A stretch of DNA of 54,839 nt, taken from assembly GCA_019313915.1 (NCBI GenBank), contig JAFDAJ010000005.1:1-54839 (forward strand), given 5' to 3'. The position numbers were made by a program, and so were the translations under genes. Positions 8,712 through 10,968 of the stretch are shown in pieces (the first letter of the stretch is position 1; each line of letters starts with the position of its first letter). Origin of the DNA: Deltaproteobacteria bacterium (GTDB lineage Bacteria > Myxococcota_A > Polyangia > Polyangiales > Houyiibacteriaceae). The notes under the pieces were generated by a model. The model saw only the letters and a program-made list of their open reading frames with translations, ran no database searches and was not told where the DNA came from.

Positions 8712-8786
8712 GGCGCCGTAGCCAAGTGGTAAGGCAGAGGTTTGCAAAACCTCCATTCGCTGGTTCGATCCCAGTCGGCGCCTCCA
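8712..8786 (+). tRNA. tRNA-Cys (anticodon GCA)
   Basis: A complete cloverleaf can be folded by eye. Acceptor arms GGCGCCG (8712-8718) and CGGCGCC (8776-8782) pair fully. The D-arm is GCC-AAGTGGTAA-GGC. The anticodon arm is GAGGT-TTGCAAA-ACCTC with GCA at the centre. The T-arm is GCTGG-TTCGATC-CCAGT. The CCA end is encoded (8784-8786). It lies 24 bases before the membrane sensor gene on the same strand. Confidence 0.95.
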
Positions 8787-8809
8787 GTCTGCCTCTTGTG
8801 GTAGTGGGT

Positions 8810-10453
8810 ATGTTTCCAATCGCTGACCTCTTCAGGCTCCGGCCACGAAACGTCCGCACTCGGCTCCTGAGGGACCTCACTCTGGTCATTTTCGTCACGT
8901 CGGGCGCCATCGTAGCCCTGGCTGTTTCGAGCGCGTCCAAGGCGGAGCGGAGCACGGCCCGTGCGCACATCGAGCGGGCTTCGACCCAGGCGCAACAGGA
9001 GTTCCGAACGCGCATGGAACCGGTCGACCGACGGCTCCGGCTGACCTGGGAGTGGGGAAAGGCGGGACTCCTCGACTCCAATGACCGGCCCACTACGCTC
9101 GCGAAGCTCGCTCCCGTGCTCGAGCCACTGCCGATGGTGACGGCGTTGATCATCGCGGACTCGAAAGGCCACGAGTTTCTCGTCTCGCGAGACCGCAACG
9201 CGGATGGCGAACCGGAAGGCTGGGTAACGCGAACCAGTGGTCTGCACGAATCCAAGGGGCAACTGCTTCGGGAACGGTGGAGTGAGCAGCGCCAACTGGT
9301 CGAGAAGTTCTGGATCGACCTCCCCGGTTACGTGCCGACCGAGCGACCGTGGTTCGTGGGCGCGGTGAGCAGCGAATCCGACGATGAAATCTATCGCACC
9401 GAGCCGTACCAGTTCTTCGAACGGAAACAGCTCGGAGTGACGGAGTCGATGCGCTGGACTCCCGTGGATGGAAACACACACGTGGTCGCGTTCGACTTGC
9501 TACTCGGCGATGTGTTCGCGGTCGTAAGTGAAATCGAGGTCAGCGACGGAGGCGAAACTTTCCTATGCAAGTCGAACGGAGATGTCTTCGTGCCCTACCG
9601 CGCGCGGCGGCCCGGAGAGCCTGCCCGCGAACCGCAGCACGTCTTCGTCGACCCTGCAAAGACCGGCAGCACGGTGATCGAGAGAGCGGTCGCGGCTTGG
9701 CTGGAAGCCGGGGGCAAAACCGACGAGCCCGTGCGATTCCGCGCGGGCGACGTCTCGGGATGGGCCGGCTTTCGTTTGGTCAATCCGCTCTCAGGCATCT
9801 GGATGGGCGTTGCGGTGCCCGAGCCGGAGATCTTTGGCGCCACGATCGATTGGACACCGCAGCTCATCGTGATCATTGCCTTGGTCTTGTTGCTCGGCCT
9901 GCTTCCCGCGGTGACCATCGTCCGCAAGTACAGCCACCAACTCAAAGACATCCCCAAGCAGCTCATCGGTCCGAAGACCTTCGAGCGCGACGTGCAAGAA
10001 CTGATCGCGCGCGGCGAAGGCCCCACTCTGGAGTTCAAGTCCACCGTTCGAATGAACCTCAAGACGGAGAAGTTTGGAAAAGAGATCGAGCTGGCATGGC
10101 TCAAGAGCGCGACCGCGTTCATGAACTCCGATGGGGGCACACTCCTCATCGGCGTGAGCGACGACGGCGAAGTGCTCGGCGTCGAGCACGACAAGTTCGA
10201 TAACGAGGACAAGTGCCGACTGCACCTGAAGAACCTCGTCAACCAACACATCGGCGCTGAGTTCTCCCGGCTCATCCGCTTCGTGGTCCAACCGATCGAC
10301 GCCAAGACAGTCGTCGCAGTCCAATGCGAGCGCTCCGCCAAACCAGTCTTCCTCAAGGGAAAGAACAGGGAGTCCTTCTACATCCGAAGCGGCCCCTCCA
10401 GCGTAGAGCTCTCCCCCCGCGAGGTCCTAGAATACGTAAACCGTCGAACGTAA
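8810..10453 (+). CDS. Membrane sensor with periplasmic Cache-like domain and cytoplasmic Schlafen AlbA_2 domain
   Basis: The protein has 547 residues from the ATG at 8810; the open frame upstream runs through tRNA-Cys and is not coding. It has a membrane helix at about residues 21-40, a long extracytoplasmic region of dCache-like layout (41-348), and a second helix at about 351-371. The cytoplasmic part ends in an AlbA_2 (Schlafen-type) domain from about residue 400: GEGPTLEFKST, then FMNSDGGTLLIGVSDDG. E403, E408 and an aspartate near 451 lie where RNase Schlafens keep their E-x4-E...D site. The architecture suggests a one-component signal-to-nucleic-acid switch. The function is unproven. 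Confidence 0.75.
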   Translation: MFPIADLFRLRPRNVRTRLLRDLTLVIFVTSGAIVALAVSSASKAERSTARAHIERASTQAQQEFRTRMEPVDRRLRLTWEWGKAGLLDSNDRPTTLAKLAPVLEPLPMVTALIIADSKGHEFLVSRDRNADGEPEGWVTRTSGLHESKGQLLRERWSEQRQLVEKFWIDLPGYVPTERPWFVGAVSSESDDEIYRTEPYQFFERKQLGVTESMRWTPVDGNTHVVAFDLLLGDVFAVVSEIEVSDGGETFLCKSNGDVFVPYRARRPGEPAREPQHVFVDPAKTGSTVIERAVAAWLEAGGKTDEPVRFRAGDVSGWAGFRLVNPLSGIWMGVAVPEPEIFGATIDWTPQLIVIIALVLLLGLLPAVTIVRKYSHQLKDIPKQLIGPKTFERDVQELIARGEGPTLEFKSTVRMNLKTEKFGKEIELAWLKSATAFMNSDGGTLLIGVSDDGEVLGVEHDKFDNEDKCRLHLKNLVNQHIGAEFSRLIRFVVQPIDAKTVVAVQCERSAKPVFLKGKNRESFYIRSGPSSVELSPREVLEYVNRRT

Positions 10454-10473
10454 AAAGGGGACAGTCCCTTTTT
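10452..10473. repeat. Perfect A/T-flanked palindrome, REP-like or terminator
   Basis: Five A and four G pair with three C, a wobble T and five T around an ACAG loop, giving a nine-base-pair stem. It starts inside the sensor gene's stop codon. It can work as a rho-independent terminator in either direction. The GGGGACAGTCCC core is also of the short palindrome type that recurs in proteobacterial genomes, and a related element sits at 11640-11656. Confidence 0.6.
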
Positions 10474-10533
10474 GAAAGGGTTAAATCACAGACCTCGGGT
10501 GGCCCATTACTTTATTTAATGTAAAGCAAGCTC

Positions 10534-10968
10534 ATGAACGCCCAAAGCCCTCGAATTGACGTGGATTTGCTCAAGGAGCACCTGGTCGAGGTCTCGGAGC
10601 ACGAGTCCGAGCTCACCGATCTCGTGTACGAAAGCCTCTTTGCCAAGCGTCCCGACGCCGTGGAGCTCTTCGGCACCTACAGCCGGGCCAACCAGCAGAG
10701 GATGATGGCGGAAACCCTCGGCGCGGTCCTGAACATGCTCGACCAGGAGCACTGGCTCGGCGAGTACGTCCACGCGATGGGGTCACGCCACCAGTTTTCC
10801 TACGAGACCCCCTCCGACATGTACGCGCCCTACGCCGAGGCGATGCTGGAAGCGCTTGCGGCGGTGTCCGGAGCGGACTGGACGCCGGAGTTGCAGCACT
10901 CTTGGAAGGCGGCCTTGGATCGGGTGAACGAGATGATGACAGCGGGCTACGTCCCCACTTCGCACTAG
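10534..10968 (+). CDS. Single-domain globin
   Basis: The 144-residue all-helical protein has the length and layout of a bacterial single-domain globin. The proximal haem ligand is probably H86, in HAMGSRHQFSYETPSDMYAP, which matches the F-helix/FG-corner pattern. The C-terminal helix (WKAALDRVNEMM) fits the H helix. Bacterial globins bind O2 or NO; without a fused reductase, NO dioxygenation would need a separate electron donor. It converges on a nitrobindin-like haem protein, and both lie between two palindromic elements. Confidence 0.8.
   Translation: MNAQSPRIDVDLLKEHLVEVSEHESELTDLVYESLFAKRPDAVELFGTYSRANQQRMMAETLGAVLNMLDQEHWLGEYVHAMGSRHQFSYETPSDMYAPYAEAMLEALAAVSGADWTPELQHSWKAALDRVNEMMTAGYVPTSH

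What the first reader, a model, noticed from the sequence alone, without database searches (positions are those of the whole stretch)
8712..10453. Two-helix extracytoplasmic sensor fused to a Schlafen-type AlbA_2 domain, 24 bases from tRNA-Cys
A periplasmic Cache-like sensor is joined directly to an AlbA_2 domain that keeps E403/E408 (E-x4-E) and a downstream Asp, as in vertebrate Schlafen RNases, which cut tRNA. The gene lies directly after a tRNA gene on the same strand. This suggests a membrane-signalled RNA- or tRNA-targeting system. The link to tRNA is only positional and the nuclease idea is an inference.
Basis: partly seen in the sequence, partly recalled or inferred. Interest (0 to 1): 0.6.

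Follow-up and report, generated by a model that had tools for sequence, protein, structure and literature searches.

The report
Membrane sensor with Schlafen RNase domain
This bacterial gene encodes a membrane receptor whose outer part resembles amino-acid sensors and whose inner part resembles tRNA-cutting Schlafen enzymes, so it may turn an outside signal directly into RNA cutting; the neighbouring tRNA gene looks like an accident of location.

Summary
Window 8810-10453 (+) encodes 547 aa: TM1, a ~300-residue extracytoplasmic domain, TM2, then a Schlafen AlbA_2 domain (Pfam E 2e-21), 23 bases after tRNA-Cys. The sensor is a double Cache by predicted structure and carries the amino-acid-binding residues of PctA (Y-R-W-[F/Y]-Y-D). 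The AlbA_2 domain (pLDDT 90) matches the SAMD9 tRNase domain and the catalytic lobes of SLFN11/13/14, and has the catalytic set E403-x4-E408-x-K410 plus D451 (aligned with SLFN13 E205/E210/D248). The sensor's relatives drive Ser/Thr kinases (13 of 29) or class III cyclases (13 of 29); only this protein and one ortholog drive a Schlafen domain. The AlbA_2 relatives sit mostly on restriction enzymes. So this is an output swap: most likely a receptor ribonuclease. The tRNA link fails: tRNA-Cys stays at this spot in 14 congeneric genomes without the gene, one of which keeps a remnant of it, and no other relative examined lies near a tRNA. RNase activity, substrate and ligand are inferred. No paper in the searched library holds both 'Schlafen' and 'Cache domain'.

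The parts
8712..8786 (+). tRNA-Cys (gca); conserved neighbour, not judged a functional part
   Evidence: ARAGORN; same place beside aconitase in 15 other genus genomes
8810..10453 (+). CDS, 547 aa: TM1 - dCache sensor - TM2 - Schlafen AlbA_2 domain
   Evidence: ortholog 83% identical; dN/dS about 0.12
8876..8932 (+). TM1, residues 23-41, preceded by a strongly basic N-terminus (cytoplasmic side)
   Evidence: hydropathy script
8939..9844 (+). extracytoplasmic dCache sensor, about residues 44-345
   Evidence: AlphaFold2 model pLDDT 83; Foldseek to Mlp24, PctA, Tlp3 ligand-binding domains
9329..9496 (+). amino-acid-binding motif: Y174, R179, W181, F182, Y200, D229 (PctA Y121, R126, W128, Y129, Y144, D173)
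   Evidence: alignment to PctA, conservation in 20 sensors, residue roles in PMC10104139
9866..9922 (+). TM2, residues 353-371, followed by basic linker
   Evidence: hydropathy script
10016..10411 (+). Schlafen AlbA_2 domain, residues 403-534
   Evidence: Pfam; AlphaFold2 model pLDDT 90; Foldseek/VIA to SAMD9 tRNase and SLFN catalytic lobes
10016..10039 (+). ExxxxExK motif E403-E408-K410
   Evidence: invariant in 14 of 14 rows of A1; aligned to SLFN13 E205/E210
10160..10162 (+). D451, counterpart of SLFN13 D248
   Evidence: invariant in 14 of 14 rows; alignment

Best explanation
A one-component receptor ribonuclease. The periplasmic double-Cache domain binds a small molecule, most likely an amino acid or a relative of one. 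Binding (or loss of the ligand) moves the two transmembrane helices of a receptor dimer, and this brings or turns the two cytoplasmic AlbA_2 domains so that their E403/E408/K410/D451 sites cut RNA, most likely tRNA, with Mg2+. The cell would thus slow or re-tune translation directly in response to an outside signal, without kinase, second messenger or transcription factor. Shown by computation: architecture, both folds, presence and conservation of the catalytic and ligand-binding residues, output swap with kinases and cyclases, purifying selection. Inferred: RNase activity, tRNA as substrate, amino acid as ligand, dimer-based switching, direction of the response.
For: Fold and active site: SLFN_AlbA_2 E 2e-21; model pLDDT 90.1; best solved structures by Foldseek are the SAMD9 domain 7ksp and the SAMD9 tRNase domain 9o0d, then 3lmm, 2kyy and SLFN13/14/11/5; VIA Z 14.2 (3lmm, unknown function), 13.0 (7ksp), 12.5 (9o0d), 8.0-10.1 for SLFN entries (one SLFN14 entry 6.5) over their catalytic C-lobes. 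E403, E408, K410, D451 invariant in 14 of 14 subfamily members, aligned to SLFN13 E205, E210, its Lys, D248 (roles from passages of PMC5862951); in SLFN14 the ExxxxExK residues are each essential (passages of PMC12215978). Sensor: dCache by structure, PctA motif residues present, R179 and W181 in 20 of 20 relatives, D229 in 17 of 20. Output swap: the same sensor type is joined to Pkinase in 13 and Guanylate_cyc in 13 of 29 ORFs, SLFN in 2. Purifying selection on both halves. Single AlbA_2 copy in the genome.
Against: No biochemical evidence for this protein. The motif is common to AlbA_2 domains, including ones of unknown function, so it does not by itself prove activity. Vertebrate SLFN nucleases use two lobes (PMC5862951 passages) and this protein has one AlbA_2 domain; it must dimerise or work like SAMD9, whose single domain suffices in human but not in rabbit (PMC12027330 passages). 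The full-length architecture was found in only 2 genomes of one genus, and at least one congener has lost it, so it is dispensable. The dCache_1 Pfam match is below its cut-off. Model coordinates could not be measured, so clustering of the acidic residues is inferred from fold matches and alignment, not from distances.
Confidence: 0.5

Rival explanations
1. Membrane-bound nucleic-acid-binding regulator: the AlbA_2 domain binds DNA or RNA without cutting it, and the receptor acts like a one-component membrane transcription factor.
For: AlbA_2 was annotated as putative DNA-binding (passages of PMC5445408), and SAMD9's domain binds dsDNA as well as tRNA (passages of PMC12027330). Receptors with DNA-binding outputs are common (recalled).
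Against: The full catalytic set is invariant in 14 of 14 relatives, which pure binding would not require; the closest solved structures with known activity are tRNases.
Confidence: 0.2
2. Anti-phage abortive-infection device: the envelope sensor detects phage attack and the Schlafen domain cuts tRNA.
For: Closest AlbA_2 relatives are fused to HsdR-like, GmrSD and type IIG restriction proteins; bacterial Schlafens are reported as anti-phage tRNases (statement and citations in PMC12839542; the preprint itself not read); patchy presence, loss in a congener.
Against: The neighbours are metabolic (aconitase, globin, THAP4-like heme protein, cytochrome c peroxidase), no defence genes among those scanned; the sensor belongs to a family that otherwise drives kinases and cyclases and has small-molecule-binding residues; PADLOC gives only a weak pAgo match in the AlbA_2 region (E 7e-4).
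Confidence: 0.15
3. Chance fusion on its way out: a rare domain join with little function.
For: Only 2 of 19 genus genomes have it; one keeps only a decayed 3' remnant.
Against: dN/dS about 0.12 overall and about 0.08 over the SLFN half; catalytic and sensor motif residues intact in both copies.
Confidence: 0.1
4. One reading: the protein acts on, or is regulated with, the adjacent tRNA-Cys.
For: Only 23 bases (36 in the ortholog) separate tRNA and gene on the same strand, with no terminator-like or sigma-70-like site found between, so co-transcription is possible.
Against: tRNA-Cys is at this place in 14 genus genomes without the gene; no relative outside the genus lies by a tRNA (0 of 28; 0 of 9).
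Confidence: 0.04

Closest known systems
SAMD9/SAMD9L tRNase domain (PDB 7ksp, 9o0d)
   Same: Single AlbA_2 domain, best Foldseek match (E 1e-6), VIA Z 12.5-13.0
   Different: SAMD9 is a cytoplasmic STAND-like protein with SIR2-like, P-loop and TPR parts; no membrane sensor. Its reported catalytic residues (E184, E196, E218, D241; passages of PMC12027330) were not mapped here
Vertebrate Schlafen endoribonucleases SLFN13, SLFN14, SLFN11
   Same: C-lobe fold and ExxxxExK + Asp active site
   Different: Two lobes in one chain, no membrane sensor, further C-terminal parts in long forms; here one lobe behind a receptor
PUCH (TOFU-1/TOFU-2), C. elegans piRNA precursor nuclease
   Same: Nuclease built from separate chains each with one SLFN fold (passages of PMC10567574), a precedent for assembly by dimerisation
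   Different: Heteromeric, no membrane sensor
dCache_1AA amino-acid receptors (PctA, Mlp24)
   Same: Double Cache fold and the six motif residues (one Y to F)
   Different: Known members feed chemotaxis, kinases, second-messenger enzymes or phosphatases; none an RNase in the passages read
IRE1 (eukaryotic; recalled, no call)
   Same: Works alike in outline: sensor outside the cytosol, TM helix, RNase inside, activated by self-association
   Different: Unrelated domains; not a family member

Membership tests
SLFN_AlbA_2 (PF04326) | Score over Pfam gathering cut-off | tested here: met
   77 bits against 25.3
Schlafen-type nuclease | ExxxxExK motif | tested here: met
   E403, E408, K410
Schlafen-type nuclease | Downstream Asp equivalent to SLFN13 D248 | tested here: met
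   D451 by profile alignment to 5yd0
Schlafen-type nuclease | AlbA_2 / C-lobe fold | tested here: met
Vertebrate-type SLFN | Two-lobed pseudo-dimer in one chain | tested here: not met
   One AlbA_2 domain only; so not a vertebrate-type SLFN, but single-domain nucleases exist (SAMD9, TOFU)
Schlafen-type nuclease | RNA cleavage | not testable with these tools
   needs an assay
dCache_1AA amino-acid receptor | Double Cache fold | tested here: met
dCache_1AA amino-acid receptor | Pfam dCache_1 over its cut-off | tested here: not met
   16.3 bits against 45; one relative reaches 46.5 (L022)
dCache_1AA amino-acid receptor | Motif residues Y, R, W, Y/F, Y, D of PctA | tested here: met
   Y174, R179, W181, F182, Y200, D229
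dCache_1AA amino-acid receptor | Binding of an amino acid | not testable with these tools
   needs titration or thermal shift
tRNA-gene-linked system | Linkage to a tRNA gene conserved among relatives | tested here: not met

The most novel reading that the evidence does not exclude
A bacterial receptor ribonuclease: a transmembrane amino-acid sensor whose direct output is tRNA cleavage, so that an extracellular metabolite sets the translation capacity of the cell in one protein. It would be a bacterial counterpart, by unrelated parts, of the IRE1 principle, and Schlafen domains would join kinases and cyclases as a receptor output.
Probability: 0.33. Interest if true: 0.85.

Novelty: new variant of a known kind. 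Interest (0 to 1): 0.6.

Why it matters
Bacterial receptors are known to end in kinases, cyclases, chemotaxis adaptors or DNA-binding domains. A receptor ending in a Schlafen-type RNase would be a new way to turn an outside signal into an immediate change of translation, and it would place Schlafen nucleases, otherwise discussed as antiviral and anti-phage effectors, in ordinary environmental sensing. The sensor carries amino-acid-binding residues, so the idea of amino-acid-controlled tRNA cleavage can be tested directly with two purified domains.

Tried and rejected
tRNA linkage as evidence of function: rejected. D441 (NSDGG) as third catalytic residue: rejected, acidic in only 10 of 14 relatives and Gln in SLFN13; D451 is the counterpart. 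Mobile-element insertion at the tRNA 3' end: not supported; G377 keeps an 88-base, 90%-identical remnant of the gene's 3' end plus a 38-base piece in the right order, which points to an ancestral gene that decayed. G384 keeps 34 bases after the tRNA including the gene's first 11 bases, weaker evidence that could also be older spacer DNA. CbCash (PDB 9ylu), a weak profile match (E 1.7e-5): looked for in papers, nothing found. Distances between E403, E408 and D451 in the model could not be measured, as no coordinates are laid out (file listing). Literature: 'Schlafen' with 'Cache domain', 0 papers; looser searches showed no sensor-Schlafen fusion in the rows listed (one search listed 15 of 59, 10 of 1,064). 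The bioRxiv preprint on bacterial Schlafens cited in PMC12839542 was not read. One search read the 15 minus-strand loci in the wrong orientation and was superseded.

Full report
What is there. tRNA-Cys(gca) at 8712-8786 is followed after 23 bases by a 547-aa gene at 8810-10453 on the same strand. The protein has two strong hydrophobic segments (23-41, 353-371) around about 310 residues, and a C-terminal SLFN_AlbA_2 domain (403-534, E 2e-21). It is the only AlbA_2 protein found in the genome. Against its 83%-identical ortholog in the same genus (G373 = JAUXFZ010000126), dN is 0.10 and dS 0.86: the gene is under purifying selection in both halves.

Sensor half. Pfam sees dCache_1 only weakly, but an AlphaFold2 model from an alignment of 20 sequences (pLDDT 83) matches double-Cache ligand-binding domains of chemoreceptors (Mlp24, PctA, Tlp3 and others; best solved domain E 4e-10). 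The alignment to PctA puts Y174, R179, W181, F182, Y200 and D229 on PctA Y121, R126, W128, Y129, Y144 and D173 (my numbering: chain index plus 8), the amino-acid motif residues named in PMC10104139 (passages read). In the 20 sequences R179 and W181 are invariant, position 182 is F or Y in 20, Y200 in 19, Y174 in 17 and D229 in 17. An amino acid or a close relative is therefore the likeliest type of ligand (inference).

Output half. The AlbA_2 model (pLDDT 90.1) has as best Foldseek matches the SAMD9 domain structures 7ksp and 9o0d ('tRNase domain'), then 3lmm, 2kyy and SLFN13, 14, 11, 5. VIA-align gives Z 14.2 for 3lmm (142 residues, 3.4 A; function unknown), 13.0 for 7ksp (150, 3.3 A), 12.5 for 9o0d (146, 3.3 A), and 8.0 to 10.1 for SLFN entries over their residues of about 170-350 (one SLFN14 entry, 9jn9, at 6.5), their catalytic lobe. 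A profile search of PDB sequences aligns E403, E408, K410 and D451 to SLFN13 E205, E210, its Lys and D248 (my numbering: chain index minus 13). SLFN13 E205A and E210A are inactive and mutation of D248 diminishes activity (passages of PMC5862951); in SLFN14 each residue of ExxxxExK is essential and the Asp pair is peripheral (passages of PMC12215978). All four are invariant in 14 of 14 members of the subfamily. In a wider sample of 30 AlbA_2 loci from the order, 26 could be aligned; all 15 alignments that reach the motif have E, E and K, and 22 of 26 have the Asp. So the motif is a property of the family and not a special feature of this gene.

Output swap. In 377 genomes of the phylum, the full protein finds 38 genomes at E 1e-10, but only the window and its ortholog match over the full length; the rest match one half. 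The sensor half is found in 51 of 377 genomes. Of 30 loci returned by that search I gave 29 ORFs to Pfam (one truncated ORF left out): 13 have Pkinase, 13 Guanylate_cyc, 2 SLFN. The SLFN half is found in 23 of 377 genomes; in the ten ORFs scanned by Pfam it sits at the C-terminus of HsdR-like proteins (4), on GmrSD_N proteins (2), inside an Eco57I-type enzyme (1), on a small membrane protein (1), on a contig-truncated ORF (1), and on one with no other Pfam domain (1; it groups with a GmrSD type). A maximum-likelihood tree of 20 domains puts the window pair nearer to the HsdR type than to the short two-TM type. The best reading is that a Schlafen module of the restriction-enzyme kind was placed behind a receptor front end that normally drives kinases and cyclases.

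Mechanism. Receptors with such a front end usually work as dimers (established knowledge, recalled). Vertebrate Schlafen nucleases use two lobes, and separate single-lobe chains can assemble into a nuclease (PUCH; passages of PMC10567574). A receptor dimer would bring two AlbA_2 domains together, so ligand-driven rearrangement is a natural switch. Substrate: tRNA is favoured because SLFN13, SLFN14 and SAMD9 cut tRNA, but rRNA or mRNA are not excluded. Everything in this paragraph beyond the cited facts is inference.

The tRNA neighbour. tRNA-Cys next to the divergent aconitase gene is present in 15 of the 17 loci fetched from 16 other genus genomes (the two without it are contig-end pieces of one genome, G387), each with aconitase beside it. 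Only one of these 15, the ortholog's, has the gene. By whole-genome search the full-length gene is in 2 of 19 genus genomes. In two of the 14 others the contig ends within 300 bases of the tRNA, so the locus itself could not be read there. G377 keeps a decayed 3' end of the gene before the globin gene (88 bases, 90% identity, E 3e-29). So the gene was probably present in an ancestor at this place and was lost; its nearness to tRNA-Cys is inherited position within one genus. Partial relatives elsewhere have no tRNA nearby (0 of 28 loci; 0 of 9). Co-transcription with the tRNA is possible, as no terminator-like or promoter-like site was found in the gap, but such scans are weak in this group.

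Neighbours. Downstream lie a globin, a THAP4-like heme protein and a di-haem cytochrome c peroxidase; no defence gene was seen among the neighbours scanned. This weighs against an anti-phage role for this member, though its SLFN relatives are clearly tied to restriction proteins and PMC12839542 reports Schlafen RNases in and around BREX loci (passages read).

Novelty. No paper in the library holds both 'Schlafen' and 'Cache domain', and the rows I saw of the looser searches show no such fusion. Parts are known; the combination, a receptor with a Schlafen RNase output, appears new. I rate it a new variant of a known kind, with an open path to something larger if the RNase activity and the ligand are shown.

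Noticed in passing
L009, L011, L012, L013, L015 (HsdR type); L026, L031, L051, L158 (GmrSD type); L050 (type IIG); L157 (N-6 methylase): The same Schlafen AlbA_2 subfamily is fused to several restriction-modification proteins, mostly at the C-terminus: restriction enzymes that may carry a built-in RNase, reminiscent of tRNases guarding restriction systems (PrrC, recalled). (L015 and L051 assigned by sequence likeness).
   Followed up: partly
L018 1120-2004, L024 (contig-cut), L154 3707-4468, L155 3581-4498, L156 3671-4480: A family of short proteins with two TM helices, a coil and the AlbA_2 domain in Myxococcota, Bacteroidota, alpha- and gammaproteobacteria; they group together in the tree (84/85; L024's N-terminus is cut, so its TM part is inferred from likeness; the script found only one TM segment over threshold in L018). 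The Pontibacter one lies between cytochrome c3 and RND efflux genes, the Sphingorhabdus one among metal-transport genes.
   Followed up: partly
L156 3671-4480 (Sphingorhabdus plasmid): The two-TM AlbA_2 gene is interrupted by an in-frame stop within the catalytic motif; it is annotated as two genes. Intact relatives exist.
   Followed up: no
window 10452-10473 and 28 other exact places in the genome: An interspersed palindrome (AAAAAGGGGACAGTCCC and its mirror) directly after the gene's stop; 29 exact copies in the genome, reversed control pattern 0.
   Followed up: partly
window about 10500-10533, upstream of the globin gene 10534-10968: An inverted repeat (CTTTA-N7-TAAAG type) kept before the globin start in G373, G377 and G384; possibly an operator.
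   Followed up: no
L021, L143-L145: In some relatives the sensor follows the Ser/Thr kinase instead of preceding it (L021 by Pfam; the others by match position only).
   Followed up: no
L160 (IMG/VR contig): A viral-collection contig carries an AlbA_2 protein with a C-terminal extension of unknown kind; not examined.
   Followed up: no
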